Shown here: positions 4,219 through 20,000 of the stretch, one piece after another
Position numbering within the stretch: position 1 is the first letter of the stretch
How the letters are laid out: every line of letters begins with the position of its first letter
Source of the DNA: Cyanobacteria bacterium CG_2015-22_32_23
GTDB lineage: Bacteria > Cyanobacteriota > Cyanobacteriia > Cyanobacteriales > Cyanobacteriaceae
Length of the DNA stretch: 41,841 nucleotides
Reading direction: 5' to 3'
Assembly: GCA_009993045.1 (NCBI GenBank)
Contig: JAACUG010000080.1
Span: 1 to 41,841, forward strand
The notes under the pieces: generated by a model
Told to the model about the DNA's origin: nothing
What the model saw: only the letters and a program-made list of their open reading frames with translations
Database searches by the model: none
Made by a program: the position numbers and the translations under genes

Positions 4219-6060
4219 CTACTTTTTCTTATCTTTTTTCAATCCGATAGGATAAGAAGGAGGTATTCCTTTGACACGAATTATAGAATTCATTACTTCT
4301 TTGACAACAGGTGCAGCAACCGTTGAGCCAAATGTATTACCTCCTTGAGGCTCGTCAACTACGGCAAAAACGACATACTGAGGATCATTTGTGGGTAAAA
4401 TGGCAACAAAACTGGTAAATTTGGCGTTGGCAAGGTATCTACCTTTTCCATCATCTTTTTGAGCTGTACCTGTTTTACCTCCTATATGATAGCCGTCAAT
4501 TTGAGCTGCAGCTCCCGTACCATTAGCAACCACTGAATCCATCATTTTAACGACACTATGAGCAGAACTTTCCGAGAAAATTTGTTTACTAGGTAATTTT
4601 GGTACAGATTTTAACTCTCCCTCAGCATTTACTAAACCTTCTACCACATGAGGGGTGACTAATTTTCCACCGTTAGCTAAAGCAGCGTGTAATTGTACTA
4701 ATTTTAATGGCGTTAATGAAAATCCTTGTCCGAAAGCCGAAACGGCTGGTTCAATATCTCGAGCGGTAAAGATTTCCTTCGGTTTAAGATACCCTGTCGC
4801 TTCAAAGGGTAAATCTATACCCATTAATGTATTTAGTCCTAATTCTTGCAGTCTTTGGTAATATTTAGCACGATTTATTTTTCTCATAATATAAATCATC
4901 CCCGTATTACTAGAAACTTCTAAAACTTTAGTGATACTAACCCAACCTTTTCCCGTTTTAGAAGCATTAGCAATAGGCCAACCATCTACATTAATACTTG
5001 GAGCATCTAATGCTAAAGAATCTGGGGTGATCACTCCTTCATCCAAAGCGATGGCTACATTAAGAGGTTTAAAGGTAGAACCGGGCTCATAAGTATCTGT
5101 AACTGACCAATTTTTATATAAAGAAAAATCGTAGAGAGAATATTTATTAGGATTATAAGTAGGTTCACAAGCTAAAGCGATAATTGCACCATTATGAACA
5201 TCCATAACGATGACTGTTCCTCTTTTTCCATTAAATTTTTTAAGTTGATTTTTGAGGGCTTCTCGTACTGCTCTTTGTAACCTTAAGTCTAAAGTTAATT
5301 TTAATTGCAGATCATCTAATTTCACAATACCATCAGGTAAAGAACCAGGAATAATTGCACCTTGTCCATCTTTTTGAACCGTTAACATTGATTTCATCGG
5401 TAAAGAAGAAACATCTCGTTCTAAAAGTTTTTCTTGACTATATTCTATTCCTGCTTGTCCTGAATGTTCTGTATCCACATAGCCCATAATATCAGCTAAA
5501 AGTTCACCTTGAGGATAAAAACGGGCATAGCGACGATTAAAATCAAAACCATTTAAGCTAAGTTCTTTAATTTTATTGCCTTGATCTTCGGTAATATTTT
5601 TTCCCAATAAGATTCCTGAATTGCGACTATTTAAAAGTTTTAAAATCTCATTTTTATCTCTATCTTTGAGAATATCAGACAACATTTGTGCCACTTCTTC
5701 TTTTGTCTTGACAAACTGATTCGGATGAACGTAAATCTCATAAACAACTTTATCAAGAGCTATCACATTTCCTCTACTATCAACAATAGAGCGACGAGGA
5801 ATATAAGGACGAAAATTATAAGTTTGTTGCTGTTTAGCTTTTTTTGTTAACTCATCCCCTTGTTTAATCTGTAATTGGTATAAACGCCAAAGTAAACCCG
5901 TTGCTCCCAACATTAGCACCAACCAAATAATAATTAACCTTACCAAAAAATCAAAATTAAGAGAGGTAAACTTAGGATTTTCATTTTTTAGTTGATTAAA
6001 CCAATTTTTGGAAGAAGCAGGTTTATTTATTTTTTGAGAATTGAGTTTAAAGACGTTCAT
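4219..6060 (-). CDS. ftsI: Septal peptidoglycan transpeptidase (class B PBP, FtsI/PBP3-like)
   Basis: A membrane-anchored DD-transpeptidase that cross-links septal peptidoglycan. A cytoplasmic N-terminus is followed by a transmembrane segment at about 38-60, a PBP dimerisation domain (about 80-245) and the transpeptidase domain. The three penicillin-binding motifs are intact: STFK at 328-331 (catalytic Ser328), SSN at 383-385, and KTG at 529-531. The 613-aa length is typical of bacterial class B enzymes. Six bases upstream lies a small single-pass coiled-coil gene that resembles FtsL, which supports FtsI over the elongation enzyme PBP2. A C-terminal Lys-rich tail closes the protein. Confidence 0.93.
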   Translation of the reverse strand: MNVFKLNSQKINKPASSKNWFNQLKNENPKFTSLNFDFLVRLIIIWLVLMLGATGLLWRLYQLQIKQGDELTKKAKQQQTYNFRPYIPRRSIVDSRGNVIALDKVVYEIYVHPNQFVKTKEEVAQMLSDILKDRDKNEILKLLNSRNSGILLGKNITEDQGNKIKELSLNGFDFNRRYARFYPQGELLADIMGYVDTEHSGQAGIEYSQEKLLERDVSSLPMKSMLTVQKDGQGAIIPGSLPDGIVKLDDLQLKLTLDLRLQRAVREALKNQLKKFNGKRGTVIVMDVHNGAIIALACEPTYNPNKYSLYDFSLYKNWSVTDTYEPGSTFKPLNVAIALDEGVITPDSLALDAPSINVDGWPIANASKTGKGWVSITKVLEVSSNTGMIYIMRKINRAKYYQRLQELGLNTLMGIDLPFEATGYLKPKEIFTARDIEPAVSAFGQGFSLTPLKLVQLHAALANGGKLVTPHVVEGLVNAEGELKSVPKLPSKQIFSESSAHSVVKMMDSVVANGTGAAAQIDGYHIGGKTGTAQKDDGKGRYLANAKFTSFVAILPTNDPQYVVFAVVDEPQGGNTFGSTVAAPVVKEVMNSIIRVKGIPPSYPIGLKKDKKK

Positions 6061-6066
6061 CTTTGA

Positions 6067-6597
6067 TTAATATGCGATGGGGGAAATTTTATCTATCTGT
6101 TTTGGTTCAGGAATATTAGAGGATTTTAAGACAATAGATTTGGGAGTTATATTCGGTAAAAAAATTGGCGGTTTAGTGGGATCTGGATTCACCAAACCTG
6201 AACCAGATTCACTAGCGGACTCCGCTAATTGATTTTTAATTATTTCATCTGTAAAACTAAATTGTCTTTCTTGTTTTTGTAAATCTTGTAATTGATGATA
6301 TTTTTCAGTCCATTGTTTTGGGGCATATACCGTCATTCCATACATAACTAAAGCTATTGCTACGCTAACATAACATAAAAGTGAAGAAGCATTCTCCATT
6401 ACCATCATACTTTTTAGCCAGAAAGGTTTATTTTTATTTATCTGACTGACGACTAAAGTAGAAGATGATAAATTTCCCCTTTTCAAAGAATGAGGTTTAT
6501 TTTTTAATTCTTTGTTATCTGGGTGACGCAGAAAAGATCTATTTTTTATAACCCGAAGGTTACTTTGTTTAGAAGGGAGATTATTTTGAACTAACAT
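6067..6597 (-). CDS. FtsL-like single-pass division protein (candidate)
   Basis: A 176-aa bitopic membrane protein. A basic cytoplasmic N-terminus (1-60) precedes one transmembrane helix at about 71-91, followed by a short Gln/Glu/Lys-rich helix (about 95-127) of coiled-coil character and a Pro-rich tail. This order, and its position 6 bp before ftsI, matches FtsL, the small divisome protein that pairs with FtsB and bridges FtsQ to FtsW/FtsI. FtsL diverges too fast for sequence recognition by eye, so the call rests on topology and synteny. The long Pro/Ser-rich C-terminus is unusual for canonical FtsL of about 100-120 aa. Confidence 0.6.
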   Translation of the reverse strand: MLVQNNLPSKQSNLRVIKNRSFLRHPDNKELKNKPHSLKRGNLSSSTLVVSQINKNKPFWLKSMMVMENASSLLCYVSVAIALVMYGMTVYAPKQWTEKYHQLQDLQKQERQFSFTDEIIKNQLAESASESGSGLVNPDPTKPPIFLPNITPKSIVLKSSNIPEPKQIDKISPIAY

Positions 6598-6663
6598 AAA
6601 GATAATCTGAGATAGAGACTAACTAATATTAGCAAATATAGCAAAAATAGCTAGTTTTTTCTT

Positions 6664-7236
6664 TTAATTATTAACTAGATTTTCTTGATTAAGTTTTGCT
6701 TCATTTTCCCTCCGTTTTTTTGCGTAAAGTTGGATAGTAACCGCCATCACAATAACTAAAGCAACAATTAACCATGTGGTTATATCTAAAGGTAAATTAT
6801 TTTTAAAGATAGCTAATAAAACAATAACTAATAATAAAATAGTGGGAGCTTCATTTAAAGCACGGAATTTTTGTCCACTCCATGTATTTTCGCCCTTTTC
6901 TAATTGTTTAATAATTTTACCACACCAAAAATGATAAATTAACAATAAACCTACAAATAGAAATTTGATATGTAACCAACCAGATTTTAACACTTCAGGT
7001 TCAGTAGTGATTAATCCAATAGCCATAGATACCGTTACAATCATTCCGGGAGTGGTAATAATATTGTAAAGGCGTTTTTCCATGATTTCATATTGCTGTT
7101 TTAAAATAGTTTGAGCTGGTTCTGGTTTCTGTTGTGCTTCTGCGTGATAAACAAAAAGTCTAACTAGATAAAATAAACCTGCAAACCAAACAACAATACC
7201 GATAAGATGAAATGCTTTATACCAATAGTAAGCCAT
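6664..7236 (-). CDS. hemJ: Protoporphyrinogen IX oxidase HemJ
   Basis: An integral membrane protein of 190 aa that oxidises protoporphyrinogen IX to protoporphyrin IX, the branch substrate for heme and chlorophyll. It has the HemJ N-terminus YKAFHLIGIVVWFAGLFYL with conserved His10 in the first membrane helix. Three further hydrophobic segments follow, and the loop between helices is charged. Length and hydropathy fit the family. Most cyanobacteria use HemJ in place of HemG or HemY. It is in the same orientation as the division genes downstream, 66 bp before the FtsL-like gene. Confidence 0.92.
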   Translation of the reverse strand: MAYYWYKAFHLIGIVVWFAGLFYLVRLFVYHAEAQQKPEPAQTILKQQYEIMEKRLYNIITTPGMIVTVSMAIGLITTEPEVLKSGWLHIKFLFVGLLLIYHFWCGKIIKQLEKGENTWSGQKFRALNEAPTILLLVIVLLAIFKNNLPLDITTWLIVALVIVMAVTIQLYAKKRRENEAKLNQENLVNN

Positions 7237-11554: not shown

Positions 11555-12451
11555 ATGGCTACAGAAGAGATTAATGCTCTAATTGAACAAGTGGATGAAA
11601 GGGCGCAAGGATTAATTACTGAAGGAGAAAAATCTTTCCAACAAGTAGAAGAAATAGTTGCCAAAGCCACAGAAATTGCCGAAAATCTTGCTACAGCAGG
11701 AGAAGAGGCACAAACAAAGTGGGAAGCGATGATTGCTGAAATTGAAGAAGCGGAAGCAACCCTCGAAACTGAGTTGGAAAATACTCGCAGTATTATGGAA
11801 GAGTTTGACGGAAAAGTTACGGAAATTACAGATCAAGTTAATCAATCTATTACGGATTTTCAAGCAAAATTACAGGAGTTTATTGCCAGAAAAGAAGAAA
11901 TAGCCTCAGAAATTGAAAATCAAACACAGGAGAGTAAATCTAATTTTGATCAATATTCTCAGAATATCAAAGAAACGGAAGAACAATTGGGAAATTATCA
12001 AGAGACGGCTAAAAGTAACATTGAAGAATTAAATGGTGCAGTAGATACAGCTACAGAAAGTTTCCAATCTCAAACAGAGAATGTTGTACAACAATTTACT
12101 GATTTAGCAGAGGAATTAAACAGCAAACTAGAAAGTTTACAAAGTGAATTTGAAGACGTACAAGAACAAGCTCAATCAAGTAGTGAGTCTTTGTTACAAA
12201 ATCTCGAATCTCAAGCTACGGATTTAGTAAGTAATTTAACTTCTAAATTTACAGAGGAATTAATGGGAGATTTAACAGAATCGGCGGGAGGTTTAACGGA
12301 GGCTTTAGGTTTCCTTGAAACTGCTGGAAGTGAAGCGGGAGATTTATTAGAAGGTGGTATTGGGGATATTGTTGATCAAGTAAGTGAAATTACCGATTTA
12401 ATTGAAGAAATAAAGCCCGTTTTAGACATGATTCAAGATGTTTTAGGTTAA
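11555..12451 (+). CDS. Coiled-coil operon protein 1, 298 aa, unknown function
   Basis: I recognise no family. The protein is almost wholly Glu/Gln/Thr/Ser/Ala-rich helix, strongly acidic, with no Cys or His, a single Pro and a single Trp, as expected for a long coiled coil. A motif GEEAQTKWEAM near residue 49 has a counterpart in protein 4 (GEQFDNNWDEL). A middle segment around residues 145-200 lines up with protein 5. The last 55 residues change character: they are Gly- and Leu-rich with amphipathic stretches (GGLTEALGFLETAG, then IGDIVDQV) and end VLDMIQDVLG. There is no signal peptide or membrane helix. It is the first gene of eight on this strand; AGAGAAG precedes the ATG as a modest ribosome-binding site. 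A structural or scaffold role is inferred. Confidence 0.8.
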   Translation: MATEEINALIEQVDERAQGLITEGEKSFQQVEEIVAKATEIAENLATAGEEAQTKWEAMIAEIEEAEATLETELENTRSIMEEFDGKVTEITDQVNQSITDFQAKLQEFIARKEEIASEIENQTQESKSNFDQYSQNIKETEEQLGNYQETAKSNIEELNGAVDTATESFQSQTENVVQQFTDLAEELNSKLESLQSEFEDVQEQAQSSSESLLQNLESQATDLVSNLTSKFTEELMGDLTESAGGLTEALGFLETAGSEAGDLLEGGIGDIVDQVSEITDLIEEIKPVLDMIQDVLG

Positions 12452-12494
12452 GGTTTTTTGTGTATTTTATATCTAATTTAAGGGGGTATTTGTG

Positions 12495-13487
12495 ATGGCT
12501 GAAACTCAAGTAATGGGGCAAAATATTGATGAATCTATTGAAAAGTTAGAGGAATTACTTAAATCTCTTGATGTTGCTAATAATCAAATGGGTGATTTTA
12601 CTCAACAGCTAGAATCTACTAATGAGTCTTTAAATCAATGTGAAGAAAATGTAACTAATATTTTAGAAACCGCTAGTAGTGATTTTGAAAGTTCTAAAGA
12701 AGAATTTACCCAAGATTCTGAGGCAATGATGGGGGAATTAACTACTTTTCAAGAAACTCTCAATCAGTTACAAGCTAAGTTAGATGAAGTTAATCAATCC
12801 ATTGAAGATAAAAAAACCGAAGTGGAGGGAGAAGTTGATAATCAACAGGAGGCTTTAGACGGAGTTTTTACTGAATTAGCTGATACTTTTAGTGACTTAA
12901 TGGAATCCATTACTAATCTTACTTCAGGTTTAGAGGAAAGTGGTAACACTGTCGAAGAATTTTTTAATACTTTTACCGAAGAAGTTTCAGGGTTACAAGA
13001 TAATTTAAGTTCTGCACAGGAAGAAACGGAGGGTAAATTAGAAGAAAGTGCCACTAATGTGGGAGAAACTCATAAAAGTTCATTAGATTCTCTCTTAAAT
13101 GATTTTAGCGGTAATTTGACGGGAGAACAATTAACGGAATTAACTTCTCAGTTAGATGATTTAACCAGTGGTTTTACTGATTTACTTTCTTCTTTCAGTG
13201 ATGAAAATATGGATTTAGCTGATCAACTTCAAGAACGACTAAAAGAAATTCTTGACAATACAGTTGAGCAAACAGGGGAAACCATGAAAGATGAATTAAC
13301 GGAGTCTTTCCAACAAGCCATGGAAGACGCTGTGTCGGCGTTGGGAGAGCAAATGGTGGAAAGCATTGCAACAACTACCATTGGCACTTCCGTAACAGGC
13401 TCAATTAGTCCTATTTTACCTCAAATTGTAGCGGCGAAAGCAGCGTTAAGTGCTATCAATGCTGTTTTAGATGCTTTCGATTTTTAA
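12495..13487 (+). CDS. Coiled-coil operon protein 2, 330 aa, unknown function
   Basis: An acidic helical protein with the same build as its neighbours: heptad-like Leu/Ile/Phe spacing, many Glu, Gln, Thr and Ser, one Cys and no Trp. Its C-terminus is special. About 25 residues (roughly 290-314) carry no charge and include SIATTTIGTSVTGSISPIL, followed by an Ala-rich helix KAALSAINAVLDAF. This could be a membrane-touching or self-association segment. I chose the ATG at 12495 over the GTG at 12492 because the AGGGGG at 12481-12486 is then 8 nt away. It starts 43 bp after protein 1. Function unknown. Confidence 0.8.
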   Translation: MAETQVMGQNIDESIEKLEELLKSLDVANNQMGDFTQQLESTNESLNQCEENVTNILETASSDFESSKEEFTQDSEAMMGELTTFQETLNQLQAKLDEVNQSIEDKKTEVEGEVDNQQEALDGVFTELADTFSDLMESITNLTSGLEESGNTVEEFFNTFTEEVSGLQDNLSSAQEETEGKLEESATNVGETHKSSLDSLLNDFSGNLTGEQLTELTSQLDDLTSGFTDLLSSFSDENMDLADQLQERLKEILDNTVEQTGETMKDELTESFQQAMEDAVSALGEQMVESIATTTIGTSVTGSISPILPQIVAAKAALSAINAVLDAFDF

Positions 13488-13529
13488 TTATTTTAATAAC
13501 ATTATCAATTATTAACAGGAGTTTTAATT

Positions 13530-14459
13530 ATGAGTGAGTTAGGGGATAGTTTAAATATGTTGTCTCAGTTGATAACTCAGTTTCCTGAAAGGTTAGAAAA
13601 TTTAATTACTTTAGCCGAAGAAGTGGAAGCCGAAGCCAATCAATTAGTAACAAATGTGGAAGAAAAACAAGCTCAAGTTGCCGAGATTATGTCACAAGTG
13701 CAAGAGTCTTTAACGGCTATGAAAGAGGAAATTACGGAAAATCAAACGGAAACTGATACTGAAGTTACTAATTTTGAAAATACCGCTAATGAGTTAAATT
13801 CTTTCTTAGATGAGGCACAACAACAAATGGTGGCTGAAATTACCGAAGCGATGGAAAAAATGAATGAATTTAAAACTCAAATTGAGGAGGGTAAAACTGC
13901 GACGGAAGATACTGAAGAAACAACTCAAACGACGTTAACTGAAGCACAAAACGCCATCAAAGGTAGTCAAGAGCAATTAGCCGCAGCCATGGAAAGTACT
14001 CTTAGCGTTATGGAAGGCTTACGAGATAAATTAGAAGATGTTAACAGTCGCATGGAAGAAGAGATGAGTAACTTTAGCGAACAAGTTAACCAAAGTCAAG
14101 AAACCGTTGGTAGTAGTATTCAAACTATGGCGCAGGAGTTTACTAGCGTTAGTGAGAATTTTAGTGGGGTTTTATCTTCAACTTCTGAGGCAATGTCAGG
14201 AGGAGTTAACGGTTTAATGGATAAAGCACAAAGTGAAATTGAAGAGCAATTACAAGAATTGATTTCATCGGCGGTGAGTAAAGTGACGGATTCTATTGAT
14301 GAAATGGTACAAAAAGTTACCGATGCGGAAAATGAATCTTCAGGGGTTAGTGACATCGTTAAAGATTTAATTGATGAATTAGAGGTGTTTATTGAGCCTA
14401 TTGAAGAGGGTATCGATAGTGTTAAATCAGCCGCAGAAAAATTTGGCGTTTCTTTTTAA
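13530..14459 (+). CDS. Coiled-coil operon protein 3, 309 aa, unknown function
   Basis: Acidic coiled-coil-type protein rich in Glu, Gln, Thr and Met, with no Cys, Trp or His and only two prolines (QFPERLE near residue 18 and IEPIEE near residue 290). The C-terminal 50 residues, from about SSGVSDIVKDLIDELEV onward, resemble the C-terminus of protein 1 in pattern (D-I-V followed by D-L-I-(D/E)-E) and end GVSF. An AGGAG ribosome-binding site lies 10 nt before the ATG. Its last nine codons and stop lie inside the first copy of an 86-bp tandem duplication, so a second, non-functional copy of its 3' end lies downstream. Confidence 0.8.
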   Translation: MSELGDSLNMLSQLITQFPERLENLITLAEEVEAEANQLVTNVEEKQAQVAEIMSQVQESLTAMKEEITENQTETDTEVTNFENTANELNSFLDEAQQQMVAEITEAMEKMNEFKTQIEEGKTATEDTEETTQTTLTEAQNAIKGSQEQLAAAMESTLSVMEGLRDKLEDVNSRMEEEMSNFSEQVNQSQETVGSSIQTMAQEFTSVSENFSGVLSSTSEAMSGGVNGLMDKAQSEIEEQLQELISSAVSKVTDSIDEMVQKVTDAENESSGVSDIVKDLIDELEVFIEPIEEGIDSVKSAAEKFGVSF

Positions 14460-14602
14460 AAAACATATATAAATACAAATAGACAACCAACAAATCATTC
14501 ATTAAAAACTATTCACTCGCAGAAAAATTTGGCGTTTTTTTTAAAGAACATATATAAATACAAATAGACAACCAACAAATCATTCATTAAAAACTATTCA
14601 CT
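14432..14602 (+). repeat. 86/85-bp tandem duplication over 3' end of coiled-coil gene 3
   Basis: Copy 1 is 14432-14517 and copy 2 is 14518-14602, head to tail with no gap. Copy 1 covers the last nine codons and stop of gene 3 plus the spacer. Copy 2 repeats it with a one-base deletion in the T-run and an A-to-G change near the former stop. The near identity points to a recent event. It makes this spacer the longest in the operon (164 bp). Confidence 0.93.
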
Positions 14603-14623
14603 ATTAAAAGGAGAAAAAAAATC

Positions 14624-15526
14624 ATGGCTGTAGATTTAGAAAATAGCATTGGTGAAACTGTCAATCAACTACAAGAATTATTGAATCGTGCAGAAGAAGC
14701 AGAAGAAAATCTGACTCAAGCAAGGGAAAAATTAGCCGCCGTTGGAGAGCAATTTGACAATAATTGGGATGAGTTATCTAACCGCGCCCAAGGATTATTA
14801 GATAAAATTTCCACGGCTAGAGAGGAGTTAAATACTCAAACTGATAGTTTAAAAGAAGGTTTAACTAATTTACAAAGTAATGTACAATCGGTTCAAGAAG
14901 AGGCTAGTCAAGGAGTAGAAGAAACTAAAACCGAAATTACTGCGTTAAAGGATGACAGTGAAACGAAATCATCGGAATTGCAAGAGGTTTTTAACACTAT
15001 CAAAGAAGCCTTAGAAACTTTACAAAGCAAAGTGGAAGAAGTACAACAGGATTTAGAGGATACTGTTACTGAATCTCAAGGTAAGTTAGAAAGCGATTTT
15101 CAAAGTGCTATTAATAGTAATCAAGAGCAAGTCGAAGAAAAAACCGCAGAAACAGAGCAACAGATTGCCCAAGATGCTATTTCTCGTTTAAATGATATGG
15201 TTTCTAATTTTTCTACCCAAATTGAGGAATTAACGGCTAATGTCACCACTCAAGCAGAAGAACAAAGTAACAATACTCAAGAGTCTGCTAACTCTACTTT
15301 AGAAGATTTTACAGGACAAGTAGAAGGAATTTTTGGAGATTTACTTTCTACTGCCGAAGGTATTGAAAGCGCTTTGACAACTCTTAGTGAAACTGTTTCA
15401 GGTTTGGGTACTACTGTTGACACGACAAAAGATACGGTGGTTACAGCAATGGATACTACTAATATTGGTTTAAAATCTGCCCTTGGCATTTTTGATGAGG
15501 TTAAGGAATTGTTAGGAAAAGTTTAA
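14624..15526 (+). CDS. Coiled-coil operon protein 4, 300 aa, unknown function
   Basis: A long acidic helical protein with no Pro, Cys, His or Tyr at all and a single Trp in the motif GEQFDNNWDEL, which mirrors protein 1. The central two thirds are typical coiled coil with Glu/Gln/Thr/Ser surfaces. The C-terminus turns to Gly, Thr, Val and Leu (TLSETVSGLGTTV and then IGLKSALGIF) and ends in a short helix KELLGKV. AAAGGAG lies 12 nt before the ATG, a good ribosome-binding site. Together with proteins 1-3 it forms the less AT-rich half of the operon. Function unknown. Confidence 0.8.
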   Translation: MAVDLENSIGETVNQLQELLNRAEEAEENLTQAREKLAAVGEQFDNNWDELSNRAQGLLDKISTAREELNTQTDSLKEGLTNLQSNVQSVQEEASQGVEETKTEITALKDDSETKSSELQEVFNTIKEALETLQSKVEEVQQDLEDTVTESQGKLESDFQSAINSNQEQVEEKTAETEQQIAQDAISRLNDMVSNFSTQIEELTANVTTQAEEQSNNTQESANSTLEDFTGQVEGIFGDLLSTAEGIESALTTLSETVSGLGTTVDTTKDTVVTAMDTTNIGLKSALGIFDEVKELLGKV

Positions 15527-15593
15527 TTATTTGACAATTAATCATTAACAATTAATAATTTTTTTTCCTGCTTAATCCTATCTATAAAATATC

Positions 15594-16490
15594 ATGACAT
15601 TAAATGAGTTAATAGATCAAATGACGGAAAATTTTGAGTTGATGGAGACTAAAACTCAGTCTTCTTCTACTTCTTTTTCTAGTATTAATAAAGCGATCTC
15701 ATCTTTGAAAGAAAGTATCAATAATATTAACGAAAATACTATTAATATTAGTAGCAATTTAGGGCAAAAAATCTTAGATTTAGCTACTCAATTGAAAGAA
15801 GAAAAAACATCATCTAGTGAAATTTTAAATCAATTAAAGCAACAAATAAATTTAGTTGATGAAGTTACCGAAGACTTAATTACTGAGTTTAAAGACAAAA
15901 ATAATGAATTTAAAGAAGAAATTAATAATATAGATTATCAAATAGAAACGGCTTCTAATCAATTACTTAATAATATCAATGATTGGTCAAATAATATTAA
16001 AACTTTAGAGGAAGACTTAATCAGTTATGAAGAAAAAACTACTCTAAATTTAGATAATTTACAAGAAACAAGTAATAATTGGTGCAATGATTTTAAAGAG
16101 CAACAAGATAAGATAGAAGAAAATTTGACATCTTTTGAAAGTAGTTTGAATAATGAAATTCAAGAATTAAATAATAGTTTTCCTCTATTAATTAATACTC
16201 TTAAAAATCAAATATCAGCTTTAAATACCTTAAATAATGAGCAAGAAAAAACTTTAAATCAACAGTTAAAAAAAGAGATAAATCAAGAAGTTATTGAAGA
16301 ATTAATAAAAAAAATAGAAGATAATCAAGAGATAACAAAAAATATTGATAATAAAATTAATAAATTAGCTGAAAAATTAATAGATATAATAGACAAAAAT
16401 AATGAAAAATCTCAAGAATATAATGATAAATTAACAGAGATAAAACAGCTTTCTGACGAAAGTTTAGACATCATAAAATCTATTGATTAA
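15594..16490 (+). CDS. Coiled-coil operon protein 5, 298 aa, unknown function
   Basis: The first gene of the Asn/Lys/Ile-rich half of the operon. The protein is nearly all helix with repeated Asn-Asn and Glu-Glu pairs, two Trp, one Cys (NNWCNDF) and one Pro. A stretch around residues 140-200 can be laid over protein 1 without gaps (shared pattern L..Y.E....N...L, then .F..Q, then LN..I..L...F), which suggests common ancestry. There is no Gly-rich C-terminus, unlike proteins 1-4. No clear ribosome-binding site precedes the ATG. The length equals that of proteins 1 and 8 (298 aa). Function unknown. Confidence 0.75.
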   Translation: MTLNELIDQMTENFELMETKTQSSSTSFSSINKAISSLKESINNINENTINISSNLGQKILDLATQLKEEKTSSSEILNQLKQQINLVDEVTEDLITEFKDKNNEFKEEINNIDYQIETASNQLLNNINDWSNNIKTLEEDLISYEEKTTLNLDNLQETSNNWCNDFKEQQDKIEENLTSFESSLNNEIQELNNSFPLLINTLKNQISALNTLNNEQEKTLNQQLKKEINQEVIEELIKKIEDNQEITKNIDNKINKLAEKLIDIIDKNNEKSQEYNDKLTEIKQLSDESLDIIKSID

Positions 16491-16504
16491 TACTAAAAAA
16501 AATT

Positions 16505-18139
16505 ATGGAAGTTTCAGAAAATGCAAAAAAAATAGTCGCTTCCGCCGTGGGAGGATTAGGAGTTTTAGGCAGTTTAATTAGTGTTGGTTTTAAAGCTAAT
16601 TCTCAAGTTAATGCCCAAGAAGTAATAGAAAATGTGGCAGGAAGTTTACAACAAAGTAGTACTGATTTATTGGCATTGGCTCAACAATTAGAGGGAGAAG
16701 AAGCGACAAAAGTTCAAGGAATGGGTGATTATATTGGACAAATGGCGAATAAAATCGCTCAAGGGGAAATGCCTACCCAAGAAGAAATTAAAGAATCACA
16801 ACAGAAACTAGATAATTTCAGTAATGGTTCTGAAAATGCGAATAATACTTCCTCATCGTCTCATGAAGATAATTCTAGGGAGGAGAAAAATAATCAAGAT
16901 AAAGAAAATAAAACATCATCAGGAGAAAATGATACTTCATCGGGTAGTCAGGGAAAATCTGCGGGTGATTCAGGAGAGAAAAAATCTGCTTCTGAGAGTG
17001 AAAAAAATGCGTCATCTCCTAAAAATAACGAGGCTAAAGGAGAGAATAAAGACGCTAAAGGAGAAAGTAAAGAAAAAGATAGTGGAGATAAAAATAAATC
17101 GGGAGGAAAAAGTGGCGGAGAGGAGAATAAATCAGGGGCGGAAGAAATGTCAAAAGATGTTGATAAAGCTGGGGAAAAAATGGATGAGATTAATGAAAAG
17201 TTAGGAGAATTAACTAAGTTATTTGATGATTTAACAGGAGAATCTGAGGAAAAAGTGGAGGAATTAAACGACACTAATCAACAGTTAGATGAATTATTGC
17301 AAAATTTGACAGACAAATTCACCGAAAATGAAACAGATATAGATAATCAGAATGATGATACTTTACAACAATTTACAGATTTTAAAACTATCTTAAATGA
17401 ATTAGTTACGACTCTTTCAGATATAAAAGAAACTTCTCAACAACAAACACCAAATCTGATTAATAAAATAGAATCTGATCAAGAATTACTTAAAAATAAG
17501 TCTAACAATATTGATAGTATTATTCAACAAATTATTGCAGGAGATTATGGTGATAGTAATAACGATGATAATGAAAATATAGTTACTACTCCAGAAAATT
17601 TAACTACAATTAAAGAAAAAATTGAAGAATCTTTTACTCCTTTTCAGTTACTAATTGATAACATTAATAATGGTTTAGAAAAAGAGATTAATGATACAGA
17701 TAATTTTATAAATAGCATAATAGATTTAGTTAATAATAGTCAATCAGAATTATCAGAAAAAATAGCTAATTTAATAACAAACATTCAAGATGAAAAAATT
17801 ATCAATATTGAAAATAGCTTTAACGATACTAGCCAAATATTAAAGGATGAAGCTGAAAATTTTATAGAAAAAAACTCAGATTTATTAACCCAATTTAAAA
17901 TTGATAGTGAATCATCTTTAGACGAAATAAAAAATAATGGAGATGAAGAAATAGAGGAAAAAATGACAGAATTAATTAATGAATTGTCAGAGTTTTTTGA
18001 GCAAAATGATAATAACTATCAAAATATTGAAGTTTTAATTAATGTCTTGACAGAAATAAATATTATTGCTGAAGATTTAATAGAAACAGCAAGTATAGCA
18101 GAAAAAATGAATGAAAATTTAGATAGTATTGTTATTTAA
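16505..18139 (+). CDS. Coiled-coil operon protein 6, 544 aa, anchored or exported, with disordered linker
   Basis: The odd member. Residues 10-29 are hydrophobic (IVASAVGGLGVLGSLISVGF) after a short charged start. They could be a transmembrane anchor or a signal peptide with a VNA|Q cleavage site after residue 37. A helical segment (38-104) follows, then about 105 residues (106-211) of Ser/Lys/Glu/Gly/Asn low-complexity sequence that must be disordered, then a coiled-coil region (212-544) like its neighbours. It begins 14 bp after gene 5 and ends 13 bp before gene 7, so it belongs to the same transcript. It may tether the soluble coiled-coil proteins to a membrane (inference). The family is not recognised. 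Confidence 0.78.
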   Translation: MEVSENAKKIVASAVGGLGVLGSLISVGFKANSQVNAQEVIENVAGSLQQSSTDLLALAQQLEGEEATKVQGMGDYIGQMANKIAQGEMPTQEEIKESQQKLDNFSNGSENANNTSSSSHEDNSREEKNNQDKENKTSSGENDTSSGSQGKSAGDSGEKKSASESEKNASSPKNNEAKGENKDAKGESKEKDSGDKNKSGGKSGGEENKSGAEEMSKDVDKAGEKMDEINEKLGELTKLFDDLTGESEEKVEELNDTNQQLDELLQNLTDKFTENETDIDNQNDDTLQQFTDFKTILNELVTTLSDIKETSQQQTPNLINKIESDQELLKNKSNNIDSIIQQIIAGDYGDSNNDDNENIVTTPENLTTIKEKIEESFTPFQLLIDNINNGLEKEINDTDNFINSIIDLVNNSQSELSEKIANLITNIQDEKIINIENSFNDTSQILKDEAENFIEKNSDLLTQFKIDSESSLDEIKNNGDEEIEEKMTELINELSEFFEQNDNNYQNIEVLINVLTEINIIAEDLIETASIAEKMNENLDSIVI

Positions 18140-18152
18140 TAAGGAATAAATT

Positions 18153-19082
18153 ATGATGATTGATGAAAATTTAATTACCAGTTTAGAATATATTAGTGAA
18201 GTAAAAAAACAACTTCCTGATGAGTTAAATAAAATGACGGAAAAATTAAATATTATTAAGGAAGAAATAATAGAAATAATAGATAATAATAAAGCAAAAC
18301 AAGCTGAAATTATTACTTTATTGCTAGATATAAAAAATAAATTAAAAGATTTTGCTGAAACTATTAATAATCAACAATCTTTGTTACAAAATAAAATTGT
18401 TTTTGTTGCTGAAAAGTTAAAAAAACTTGACGAAAATATGACACAACAAGAAGCAGAAATTTCTCCGATAATAGAAGCCTTAAATAATTATTTTGTTAAA
18501 TTTGAAGAACAATTAAATACTCTTAAAAGTAAACATTTACAGCTACTAACTCAAGGAATAAATACTTTTAATGAATTATGGCAAACTTTAGATGATAATC
18601 ATGAAAAAATAGAAATCTCATGGTTAGAAATGACACAAGAAATTCAGATTCTTAATGATAAAATTAGCAATTTTCAAAATTTAATACAGTCTGAAAATGA
18701 AAATGTTAAAGATAATTTAGACAATACAGAAAATAGTCTTGATAATTATATAGAAAGTATTTTGTCTGAGGAATTAAATCCCTTAGAAATTACTTTCAAA
18801 GAAGAGATAAATAATAGTTTAGAGAATATCGAAAATCAAATAACAGAATTTAGAGAAATAAGTGAAGAAAAAGTTAAAGAATTTAGCGACTTAGTAAAAG
18901 AAAAAATTAATAGTTTTATTGAGGAGGTAGAAAATTCAATTAAGTTAGATGACTATAATTCAAATTTACAAGAATCTCATAATTCATTTTGCGATAATGG
19001 GGAAAACCTAAAAGACTCAATTCCCAAACTTAAAAAATTAATCTGCGATATGGAAGAAGCGAAAGAATCTTTGAATATTTAA
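18153..19082 (+). CDS. Coiled-coil operon protein 7, 309 aa, unknown function
   Basis: Asn/Lys/Ile/Glu-rich helical protein. It has four prolines that could break the rod into segments (near residues 21, 105, 212 and 295), two Trp in the middle (ELWQTL and ISWLEM), and two Cys near the end (SFCDNG and LICDME). AAGGAAT precedes the start; ATG codons occur at both 18153 and 18156 and I kept the first. There is no membrane segment or signal peptide. The neighbours are 13 bp and 21 bp away. Function unknown. Confidence 0.75.
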   Translation: MMIDENLITSLEYISEVKKQLPDELNKMTEKLNIIKEEIIEIIDNNKAKQAEIITLLLDIKNKLKDFAETINNQQSLLQNKIVFVAEKLKKLDENMTQQEAEISPIIEALNNYFVKFEEQLNTLKSKHLQLLTQGINTFNELWQTLDDNHEKIEISWLEMTQEIQILNDKISNFQNLIQSENENVKDNLDNTENSLDNYIESILSEELNPLEITFKEEINNSLENIENQITEFREISEEKVKEFSDLVKEKINSFIEEVENSIKLDDYNSNLQESHNSFCDNGENLKDSIPKLKKLICDMEEAKESLNI

Positions 19083-19103
19083 TTTATTTATTGGAGTAAA
19101 AAA

Positions 19104-20000
19104 ATGACTAAACTTATTGATGTTGTAATGAATATCTATGAAGATTTATTAGATTTTGAAACAGAAAAAACTCAAACTTATAATGATATTGAAGAATTAG
19201 GAGAATTTTTGATAGAAAGTAAATCATTAATGGAGGAAAATTTTGTCAGTTTAGAAAATATATCGAAATCTTTATCCGAGGAAATAGATAATATATCAGC
19301 AGATTTTTTGTTAGAAACAGAAGCAATGTTAGAAGAGTTAGAAAATTTAGCAACTAAAATTGATGAGTTTATGATTGAAAGTGAAGAATTAACCACAGAA
19401 AAAAAAGAAAATGTGATTAATTTAGTGGATAAAATGAATAGTAATAGCGATACAATTAATGATTCTTTAGAAGAATTAGAAGAAATTGTTAATAAATTTA
19501 ATGAAACAGTTACAGAAATAAAACCACCTTTAGAATCAAAACTTATCAATACTCAAACTTTTATAAAAGATGTAATGGTGAGAGGATTACAAAATTATCA
19601 AAATATCATAGAAGATAATCAAGAAAACTTAGATAATTTTTATCAAGATAATCTAAATAGTTTGATTGAAGAAAAAAAAGAAAATATATCAACAGAAGTA
19701 GATGAAGTTTCTTCCGATATTGAGAATTTAACCTTAAACTATCAAAAAATTATTAATGTTATAGAGGAAACTTTAAAAGAATTTTATGATAATAACTCTA
19801 GTGAATTAAAAGAAAAATATCAAGAGTTATTCCAATTTATTGAAGATGAGTTAATCGAAAATTTAATGAGTCATGAAGAAAAGATTAATTATGAGGGAAA
19901 TAATCTCAGAGAGAATATTATAAATTTATTAGATAATTATTCAGAAATTAATCAAAATTCTGAGTCTTTAATTGATGTTTTTGAAAAACTTATAAATTGA
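19104..20000 (+). CDS. Coiled-coil operon protein 8, 298 aa, unknown function
   Basis: The last gene of the array. An acidic helical protein with many Glu, Asn, Leu and Ile, no Cys or Trp, and a single KPPLE break near residue 138. Downstream of this it carries several Tyr-containing heptads (NYQNII, NFYQDN, NYQKII, EFYDNN). TTGGAG lies 9 nt before the ATG. The gene ends 9 bp before the end of the convergent MscS-type gene. Same size class as proteins 1 and 5. Function unknown. Confidence 0.75.
   Translation: MTKLIDVVMNIYEDLLDFETEKTQTYNDIEELGEFLIESKSLMEENFVSLENISKSLSEEIDNISADFLLETEAMLEELENLATKIDEFMIESEELTTEKKENVINLVDKMNSNSDTINDSLEELEEIVNKFNETVTEIKPPLESKLINTQTFIKDVMVRGLQNYQNIIEDNQENLDNFYQDNLNSLIEEKKENISTEVDEVSSDIENLTLNYQKIINVIEETLKEFYDNNSSELKEKYQELFQFIEDELIENLMSHEEKINYEGNNLRENIINLLDNYSEINQNSESLIDVFEKLIN

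What the first reader, a model, noticed from the sequence alone, without database searches (positions are those of the whole stretch)
11555..20000. Eight-gene tandem array of unrecognised acidic coiled-coil proteins
Eight consecutive same-strand genes encode long, acidic, Cys/Pro/aromatic-poor helical proteins. Lengths are tightly clustered: 298, 330, 309, 300, 298, 544, 309 and 298 aa. Spacers are short (13-67 bp, one inflated to 164 bp by a duplication), so they look like one transcript. Local alignments by eye support common descent: proteins 1 and 4 share a GExxxxxW(E/D) segment, and proteins 1 and 5 align over about 50 residues without gaps. I see no chemoreceptor, SMC, phage tape-measure or enzyme motif. 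A multi-subunit filament, membrane scaffold or surface-fibre system is plausible. The composition alone could mislead, since unrelated coiled coils look alike.
Basis: partly seen in the sequence, partly recalled or inferred. Interest (0 to 1): 0.85.

Follow-up and report, generated by a model that had tools for sequence, protein, structure and literature searches.

The report
Doubled four-gene helical rod cassette
Eight neighbouring cyanobacterial genes turn out to be two copies of a four-gene set for long rod-like proteins that travels with phosphate-signalling genes and, in a few relatives, with toxin genes, so it may be part of an undescribed machine for conflict between cells.

Summary
The eight-gene array is real and its members share descent, but not as eight equivalent genes. 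It is a four-gene cassette (P1-P4) followed by a diverged tandem copy in the same order (P5=P1, P6=P2, P7=P3, P8=P4; P8 least certain). For P5-P7 the matched pair scores far above every non-partner pair. The P1-P4 core occurs in 27 of 388 genomes of the order, in ten families, and once outside it; the second cassette in seven. All 27 also encode a long relative of one membrane protein: dynamin-like, without a P-loop, usually with a phosphothreonine-reading FHA domain (22 of 24 genomes checked). Of the other 361 genomes 12 have it. Kinases, an FHA-WD40 protein and a glutamate-receptor-type channel are frequent neighbours; in the window's genome the partners, with a TPS-CHAT exoprotein, lie on another contig. 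In 4 of 28 array genomes intact polymorphic-toxin-like genes sharing a ~30-residue N-terminus sit inside the cassette, one beside a SUKH immunity gene. Best explanation: a phospho-regulated, membrane-linked assembly of helical rods serving conflict between cells. Homology and linkage are shown; the mechanism is inferred, and 24 of 28 array genomes lack the toxins. No known family fits.

The parts
11555..12451 (+). P1, 298 aa, first gene of cassette 1; predicted as one long helix plus a C-terminal helix (low confidence)
12492..13487 (+). P2, 331 aa (330 from ATG 12495), second gene of cassette 1; most hydrophobic 19-residue stretch near the C terminus
13530..14459 (+). P3, 309 aa, third gene of cassette 1
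14438..14602 (.). 80-bp direct repeat (91%) covering the end of P3 and the P3-P4 spacer
14624..15526 (+). P4, 300 aa, fourth gene of cassette 1
15594..16490 (+). P5, 298 aa, first gene of cassette 2, paralogue of P1
   Evidence: hhalign P1-P5 score 113 over 302 columns, E 1.2e-15; found by the P1 profile at 57 bits
16505..18139 (+). P6, 544 aa, second gene of cassette 2: N-terminal hydrophobic segment, low-complexity Ser/Asn/Lys/Glu region, then a P2-like region
   Evidence: hhalign P2-P6 score 107 over 317 columns, E 8.5e-14
16532..16588 (+). hydrophobic N-terminal segment of P6 (residues 10-28), candidate membrane anchor
   Evidence: no topology predictor was run
17159..18133 (+). P2-homologous region of P6 (residues 219-543)
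18153..19082 (+). P7, 309 aa, third gene of cassette 2, paralogue of P3
   Evidence: hhalign P3-P7 score 106 over 303 columns, E 1.5e-14; P7 profile finds P3 in 25 of 28 array genomes
19104..20000 (+). P8, 298 aa, fourth gene of cassette 2, paralogue of P4 (weakest pair)
   Evidence: hhalign P4-P8 score 63 over 184 columns, E 2.8e-8

Best explanation
SHOWN: the array is a tandem duplication of a conserved four-gene cassette. It encodes four related, acidic, helix-rich proteins (P1-P4) plus a diverged second set (P5-P8), of which P6 has an extra N-terminal hydrophobic segment and low-complexity region. The P1-P4 core co-occurs with a dynamin-related protein that lacks a P-loop and usually carries an FHA domain, and it is often near Ser/Thr kinases, an FHA-WD40 protein and an iGluR-type channel. 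In 4 of 28 array genomes intact polymorphic-toxin-like genes with a shared ~30-residue N-terminus lie inside the cassette. INFERRED: P1-P4 assemble as a hetero-oligomeric bundle of helical rods tens of nanometres long. Kinase phosphorylation of the rods or an adaptor creates phosphothreonine sites; the FHA pseudo-dynamin binds these at the membrane and the FHA-WD40 protein binds them in the cytoplasm, so assembly is switched by phosphorylation. The assembly organises or presents effectors at the cell surface: nuclease-type toxins where present, addressed by the short N-terminal helix, or a TPS-CHAT exoprotein in the window's genome. The function would be conflict or recognition between cells.
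For: Cassette duplication. Co-occurrence 27 of 27 against 12 of 361 (Fisher p 1.4e-32, not corrected for phylogeny). The two genes lie within 15 kb of each other in 19 of 28 array genomes (coordinates; loci). FHA-TM without its FHA columns matches cyanobacterial dynamin-like proteins (hhalign probability 96%, E 2.5e-9 for this one pair, reversed control score 18); no P-loop in 38 ORFs. FHA present in 22 of 24 array genomes whose protein was checked. Toxins: PT-HINT with Ntox24, and two Ntox44, above Pfam cut-offs; SUKH above cut-off next to a cassette toxin; six proteins in 4 of 28 genomes carry the shared N-terminus, all inside cassettes. Toxin and following gene sit in the same P2/P3 slot in G025 and in G512, which is outside the order. 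Partner locus of the window's genome. Long helix.
Against: 24 of 28 array genomes, including the window's, have no convincing toxin with this N-terminus, so toxin handling is not a constant property. In two of the four toxin-bearing genomes, G189 and G242, the FHA-TM relative has no detectable FHA domain, which weakens the switch there; in G512 FHA-TM was not sought genome-wide. No P protein shows an obvious signal peptide, but no predictor was run. Apart from TpsB, no conserved export machine was noticed and none was searched for systematically; single lineages have ExbB/ExbD (G096), an AAA ATPase (G154, alike by eye in G166 and G199) or polysaccharide-export genes (G512) beside the array. 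Structure models are low-confidence monomers (pLDDT 69, pTM 0.26 for P1; pLDDT 53 for P2). Phosphorylation of P proteins is untested. In family f1 one kinase-like partner has altered catalytic motifs. Odds lowered from 0.42 to 0.40 after the FHA check.
Confidence: 0.4

Rival explanations
1. A cytoplasmic or membrane-associated scaffold filament (intermediate-filament-like coiled-coil assembly) for shape, polarity or membrane organisation, regulated by Ser/Thr phosphorylation. The toxins in some relatives are unrelated insertions.
For: Long helices and acidic composition; the pseudo-dynamin suggests membrane organisation; 24 of 28 array genomes lack the toxins. Coiled-coil filament proteins exist in cyanobacteria (PMC7002697, passages read).
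Against: The toxins share a private N-terminus that was not convincingly found outside cassettes in 28 genomes and only weakly, in very long ORFs, among 388. The same P2/P3 slot is used in two lineages. Distribution is patchy, even within a genus (one of four other members), which is unlike a housekeeping scaffold.
Confidence: 0.31
2. An intracellular suicide or anti-phage device: the rods with kinase, FHA, trypsin-like and CHAT/caspase proteins form a switch that releases effectors inside the infected cell.
For: The kinase-like partner of the window's genome matches the PD-T4-6 defence-kinase models of PADLOC (116 bits, no curated cut-off), though any Ser/Thr kinase might. Caspase-like and trypsin-like genes lie nearby in some genomes. 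Related conflict systems are described in multicellular prokaryotes (PMC7159879, passages read).
Against: The CHAT domain here is fused to a TPS secretion domain with a TpsB gene next door. The SUKH immunity gene suggests intercellular toxins. PADLOC hits of P1-P4 are weak (at most 32 bits) and spread over long coiled-coil models such as ZorA, JetC and LmuB.
Confidence: 0.13
3. A sensory envelope complex responding to ligand or ion changes through the iGluR-type channel, with the rods as a signalling array.
For: iGluR-type channel gene in the fetched loci of 12 of 28 array genomes; MscS-type gene beside the array in the window.
Against: The channel was not in the fetched loci of 16 of 28 genomes (elsewhere in those genomes not tested). 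No known sensory domain above cut-off on the P proteins.
Confidence: 0.1
4. Eight unrelated coiled coils that resemble each other only in composition.
For: P1-P4 hit many coiled-coil models weakly, and P1-P4 mutual scores (94-124) exceed the reversed controls (52-90) by a moderate margin. P8 is only slightly above its non-partners.
Against: Matched-pair specificity of P5-P7, near-full-length colinear alignments of three pairs, genome-wide searches where the wider P1 profile finds only P1 and P5 at E 1e-10, and orthology over ten families.
Confidence: 0.02

Closest known systems
[quoted passage not shown] 2012, PMC3482391; passages read)
   Same: Exchangeable toxin C-termini (Ntox24, Ntox44, PT-HINT), a constant N-terminus, and a SUKH gene next to one toxin.
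   Different: The constant N-terminus matches no Pfam domain. The genes sit inside a rod cassette. 24 of 28 array genomes, the window's included, carry no convincing one.
Type VIIb secretion (EssB pseudokinase, FHA-bearing EssC, helical Lap/LXG targeting proteins; roles recalled)
   Same: A kinase-like protein with altered motifs, an FHA-bearing membrane protein, and toxins with a helical N-terminus, in analogy only.
   Different: LXG/WXG matches stay under cut-off. The FHA partner is dynamin-like. An FtsK-type ATPase was not searched for.
Bacterial dynamin-like proteins
   Same: FHA-TM without its FHA columns aligns over 164 columns with cyanobacterial dynamin-like proteins.
   Different: No P-loop found in 38 ORFs and an FHA domain N-terminal to the matched region. 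That the FHA sits inside the G domain is inference: the segment before it aligns to the P-loop strand only insignificantly (probability 0.2%).
Cyanobacterial coiled-coil-rich filament proteins (PMC7002697, passages read)
   Same: Coiled-coil-rich proteins of unknown function in cyanobacteria.
   Different: The passages read describe individual candidate proteins and no four-gene cassette; 'FHA', 'Stanieria' and 'Halothece' do not occur in its main text.
NTP-dependent conflict systems of multicellular prokaryotes (PMC7159879, passages read)
   Same: Kinase-, FHA- and protease-associated conflict genes in cyanobacteria.
   Different: No rod cassette in the passages read; 'dynamin' does not occur in its main text.

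Membership tests
Polymorphic toxin system (for the cassette toxins, not the P proteins) | C-terminal toxin domain above a curated cut-off | tested here: met
   L052:3604 Ntox24 71 bits (cut-off 24); L128:15058 and L129:11671 Ntox44 51 and 50 bits (cut-off 24). Of six N-terminus-bearing proteins three pass; GIY-YIG in L128:11770 is below cut-off (15 of 22.6); L129:9749 and L178:7483 match nothing.
Polymorphic toxin system (for the cassette toxins, not the P proteins) | adjacent immunity gene | tested here: met
   SMI1_KNR4 (SUKH) 41 bits, cut-off 25.4, next to the G512 toxin; the following genes in L052 (no family) and L128 (leucine-rich repeats) are unproven.
Polymorphic toxin system (window's own array) | toxin gene with the cassette N-terminus | tested here: not met
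   Only a match at E 0.07 in a 1909-aa ORF of the window's genome, taken as chance.
Type VII secretion | WXG100 or LXG protein above cut-off | tested here: not met
   P4: LXG 19.9 of 26.5 and WXG100_2 20.7 of 27; P2: WXG100_ESAT6 16.2 of 44.9.
Type VII secretion | FtsK/EssC-type ATPase | not tested
   No search was made.
Dynamin-like GTPase (for FHA-TM) | sequence relationship to the dynamin family | tested here: met
   hhalign probability 96%, E 2.5e-9 for this pair, 164 columns, reversed control score 18. Pfam itself shows only FHA.
Dynamin-like GTPase (for FHA-TM) | P-loop GxxxxGK[ST] | tested here: not met
   0 of 38 ORFs (36 distinct, one a C-terminal fragment) in their first 120 residues.
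FHA protein (for FHA-TM) | FHA domain | tested here: met
   Met in 22 of 24 array genomes checked; not met in G189 and G242. G008, G166 and G199 were not checked, but their profile matches span the FHA region.
Apolipoprotein A1/A4/E (PF01442) | Pfam gathering score | tested here: not met
   At most 39.5 bits of 90.
Intermediate filament (PF00038) and similar bacterial filaments | Pfam gathering score | tested here: not met
   At most 20 bits of 40.
Intermediate filament (PF00038) and similar bacterial filaments | self-assembly into filaments | not testable with these tools
   Needs protein or microscopy.

The most novel reading that the evidence does not exclude
A new class of toxin-presenting or toxin-delivering apparatus in cyanobacteria: four paralogous rods, each mostly one helix of up to ~240 residues (about 36 nm), bundle together and are anchored through a phosphothreonine-reading pseudo-dynamin in the membrane. 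They carry effectors addressed by a ~30-residue docking helix. Some lineages doubled the rod set and use a TPS-secreted CHAT protease as effector.
Probability: 0.17. Interest if true: 0.93.

Novelty: categorically new. Interest (0 to 1): 0.73.

Why it matters
A conserved, patchily inherited module of four rod-like proteins tied to a P-loop-less dynamin relative, usually with a phosphothreonine reader, has no counterpart in the family libraries scanned or in the papers that the searches listed. If the effector link holds, it would be a new way for cyanobacteria to deploy toxins, in a group where contact-dependent antagonism is little studied (general knowledge). Even as a scaffold it would be a phosphorylation-controlled helical assembly. 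The cassette, the partners and the toxin N-terminus are defined well enough to test directly.

Tried and rejected
Pfam and NCBIfam on P1-P8 gave only sub-cut-off, mostly coiled-coil hits, rejected as family evidence. PADLOC hits of P1-P4 (ZorA, JetC, LmuB and others, at most 32 bits) were rejected for the same reason. Mobile-element origin: no match to P1 in plasmids, phages or viral contigs at the sensitivity used. Structure prediction with two-sequence alignments gave one long helix for P1 and a poor model for P2; no fold search was made because a low-confidence helix gives meaningless matches. PDB sequence search with the FHA-TM profile found FHA domains and two weak helical chains. The promoter and terminator scan was near chance. 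Nine P1-profile hits of at most 36.4 bits were dropped as likely coiled-coil cross-hits before counting 27 array genomes; one of them, G010's and G000's extra hits aside, could be a remote relative. The 206 genomes that match only around the FHA domain were not counted as FHA-TM. Family alignments for one search left out ORFs under 200 aa, P1-P4 members under 140 bits, and the G300 second cassette from P5-P8. The ~30-residue motif as a general tag rests on a pattern written after seeing the proteins; its two C-terminal instances in G236 (L132) are weak. Hydrophobic periodicity had no shuffled control and is not used as evidence.
Full report
What is there. Eight same-strand genes fill 11555-20000 with spacers of 13 to 67 bp and one of 164 bp. 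The long spacer contains an 80-bp direct repeat. All eight products are acidic (pI 4.05-4.41) and poor in Cys, and none passes a Pfam or NCBIfam cut-off. The genes lie between a sigma-70 factor gene and an MscS-type channel gene, followed by ribosomal-protein genes (rplC, rplD and more, recognised by eye).

Two cassettes, not eight equals. I built family alignments from relatives and compared them profile to profile. P1 matches P5 (score 113, 302 columns, E 1.2e-15), P2 matches P6 (107, 317 columns, E 8.5e-14), P3 matches P7 (106, 303 columns, E 1.5e-14) and P4 matches P8 (63, 184 columns, E 2.8e-8); these E-values are for single pairs. Non-partner pairs are the natural control for shared coiled-coil composition. 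Taking both directions, P5, P6 and P7 score 103-122 with their partner and 26-74 with the other three; with reversed P1-P4 profiles they score 14-46. P8 is weaker: 57-75 with P4, 27-60 with P1-P3, 23-50 with reversed P1-P4. Profiles against their own reversal reach 90 (P4) and 64 (P6). P1-P4 are related to each other less clearly: 94-124 against 52-90 for reversed profiles.

Genome-wide tests. A 16-row P1 profile run over 386 genomes of the phylum at E 1e-10 gave 11 matches: 8 P1 and 3 P5 genes. A narrower 7-row P1 profile at E 1e-5 over 388 genomes of the order was less clean: besides P1 it found some P3, P5 and P8 genes and nine genomes with only hits of at most 36.4 bits. A P7 profile run over the 28 array genomes found P7 itself in seven and P3 in 25 (missed in G007, G010 and G329); six further weak matches (28-42 bits) all fall on other genes of the arrays. 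In a P3/P7 tree the seven P7 form one clade with support 1.0, as expected for one duplication, seen in the window's family f1 and in G300. P8 was not seen at the locus in G008 and G011.

Distribution. Among 388 genomes of the order, 36 match the P1 profile at E 1e-5; 27 score over 200 bits, in ten families, and nine at most 36.4 bits, which I dropped. One more, G512, lies outside the order. Within the window's genus one of four other genomes has it. P1, P2, P3 and P4 were all found in each of the 27 array genomes other than the window's own. No relative of P1 was found in plasmid, phage or viral collections at the sensitivity used.

The dynamin-related partner. A ~713-aa protein with an FHA domain and two hydrophobic stretches by eye ('FHA-TM') has a match of at least 200 bits in 39 of 388 genomes, including all 27 array genomes of the order. 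That is 27 of 27 against 12 of 361; Fisher p 1.4e-32, without correction for phylogeny. One of the 12, G005, is only 67% complete and has an in-frame stop in the gene; in G109 the gene is split into two ORFs. FHA-TM lies within 15 kb of the array in 19 of 28 array genomes; in G000, G007, G008, G010, G011, G154, G166 and G199 it lies further away or on another contig, and in G512 it is not in the fetched 16 kb and was not sought further. With the FHA columns removed the family matches cyanobacterial dynamin-like proteins at hhalign probability 96%, E 2.5e-9, over 164 columns, against a reversed control of score 18. The segment before the FHA domain aligns to the P-loop strand only insignificantly (probability 0.2%). 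None of 38 ORFs keeps a P-loop in its first 120 residues. An FHA domain was found in 22 of 24 array genomes whose protein I checked; it is missing in G189 and G242, two of the four toxin-bearing genomes. I read the usual form as a phosphothreonine-reading pseudo-dynamin; reading and membrane action are inferred from FHA domains and dynamins in general.

Other partners. Counted in fetched loci of 28 array genomes (for the window's genome only contig C117 was counted, for G008 only its array locus, and genes elsewhere are missed): FHA-WD40 in 17, Ser/Thr kinase in 15, iGluR-type channel in 12, COP23 in 9, trypsin-like protease in 9, TpsA in 7 and TpsB in 6. In the window's genome these lie on contig C117: channel, kinase-like protein, two COP23, an active-looking kinase, FHA-TM, trypsin-like protease, a 1958-aa TPS protein ending in a CHAT domain (207 bits, cut-off 24) and its TpsB. 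The kinase-like protein of family f1 reads H(Q/S)xxKPQ(N/H) in place of HRDxKPxN where the pattern could be read; in the window's own genome the pattern was not found.

Toxins inside the cassette. In four of 28 array genomes (G025, G189, G242, G512), six proteins with a shared ~30-residue N-terminus are encoded within the cassette. Three pass Pfam toxin cut-offs: PT-HINT with Ntox24 in L052:3604-4767 and Ntox44 in L128:15058-15699 and L129:11671-12330. The others have a sub-cut-off GIY-YIG match or no match. In G512 the next gene is SUKH, above cut-off. In G025 and G512 the toxin and following gene sit between P2 and P3. In an order-wide search with the toxin N-terminal profile, 11 of 388 genomes matched at E 0.01. 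Strong matches covering the N-terminus were only in G025, G189 and G242, inside cassettes. Four genomes match the pretoxin part alone, and four have weak matches (E 8e-5 to 8e-3), some reaching the N-terminal positions, in ORFs of 2341-4116 aa. The other 24 array genomes, the window's among them, have no convincing match; the window's best is E 0.07. G236 has two cassette-adjacent proteins with a similar C-terminal segment, seen by a pattern written after the fact.

Structure. AlphaFold2 with two sequences gives P1 as a helix of residues 2-239 followed by 245-297, mean pLDDT 69, pTM 0.26. A 238-residue helix would be about 36 nm (arithmetic). The P2 model is poor. In the eight family alignments the dominant hydrophobic period is about 3.50-3.59 in earlier 100-column windows and about 3.63-3.74 in later ones, though P7 returns to 3.54 in its last window (no shuffled control). 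Assembly into bundles is inference.

Interpretation. Shown: the duplication, the conservation, the co-occurrence, the company and the toxin location. Inferred: that the rods assemble, that kinases and FHA proteins control them, and that they serve effectors. The toxin link is the main argument for conflict over a plain scaffold. Its weaknesses are that 24 of 28 array genomes lack it and that two of the four that have it lack the FHA domain. I therefore give the conflict reading 0.40 (0.42 before the FHA check) and the scaffold reading 0.31.

Literature. Eight searches in open-access papers, each showing a capped list, listed no description of this cassette in titles or abstract starts. Passages of PMC3482391, PMC7159879 and PMC7002697 were read and do not mention it. 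Subscription papers, preprints and supplements were not searched. Roles of Type VII components and of FHA, SUKH, TPS and CHAT domains are recalled unless a call is cited.

Noticed in passing
L084:11611-17487 (window's genome, contig C117): A 1958-aa exoprotein with an N-terminal TPS secretion domain and a C-terminal CHAT domain, next to TpsB; G300 has a 3002-aa counterpart.
   Followed up: partly
L046:5366-7099, L047:4931-6667, L049:5904-7622, L084:3488-5143: Kinase-like proteins, most with altered catalytic motifs, ending in CPGPLC(P/V)(E/Q); neighbouring COP23 proteins in L046 and L049 end in CPPLFC(P/D).
   Followed up: partly
L186:4133-5968 (G242) and L187:760-2577 (G189): FHA-TM relatives of 605-611 aa without a detectable FHA domain, in two toxin-bearing array genomes.
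   Followed up: partly
L046:13860-16061 (G004): An aldehyde dehydrogenase gene (314 bits) and a PIN-like gene just below its cut-off, with a small partner, are inserted between P5 and P6.
   Followed up: partly
L144:7721-8753 (G096); L137:4893-6401 (G154); L178:1244-4559 (G512): ExbB and ExbD, an AAA ATPase, and polysaccharide-export genes lie beside the array in single lineages.
   Followed up: partly
L087:9145-10773 (G032): A relative of FHA-TM without an FHA domain, beside an era-like GTPase gene: the family is wider than the module.
   Followed up: partly
L132:4963-5796 and 5920-6762 (G236): Two proteins near P1 and P4 end in similar helical segments resembling the toxin N-terminal motif.
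   Followed up: partly
L088 (G005): FHA-TM with an in-frame stop lies a few genes upstream of rplC; in the window the array itself lies close to rplC.
   Followed up: no
L145-L151 (G328, G106, G196, G072, G249, G243, G244): FHA-TM without P1-P4 in the fetched stretch; in several it is beside small or repetitive acidic proteins, in G106 one of 437 aa.
   Followed up: no
window:6067-6597: A 176-aa protein with no Pfam match, next to a penicillin-binding protein gene.
   Followed up: no
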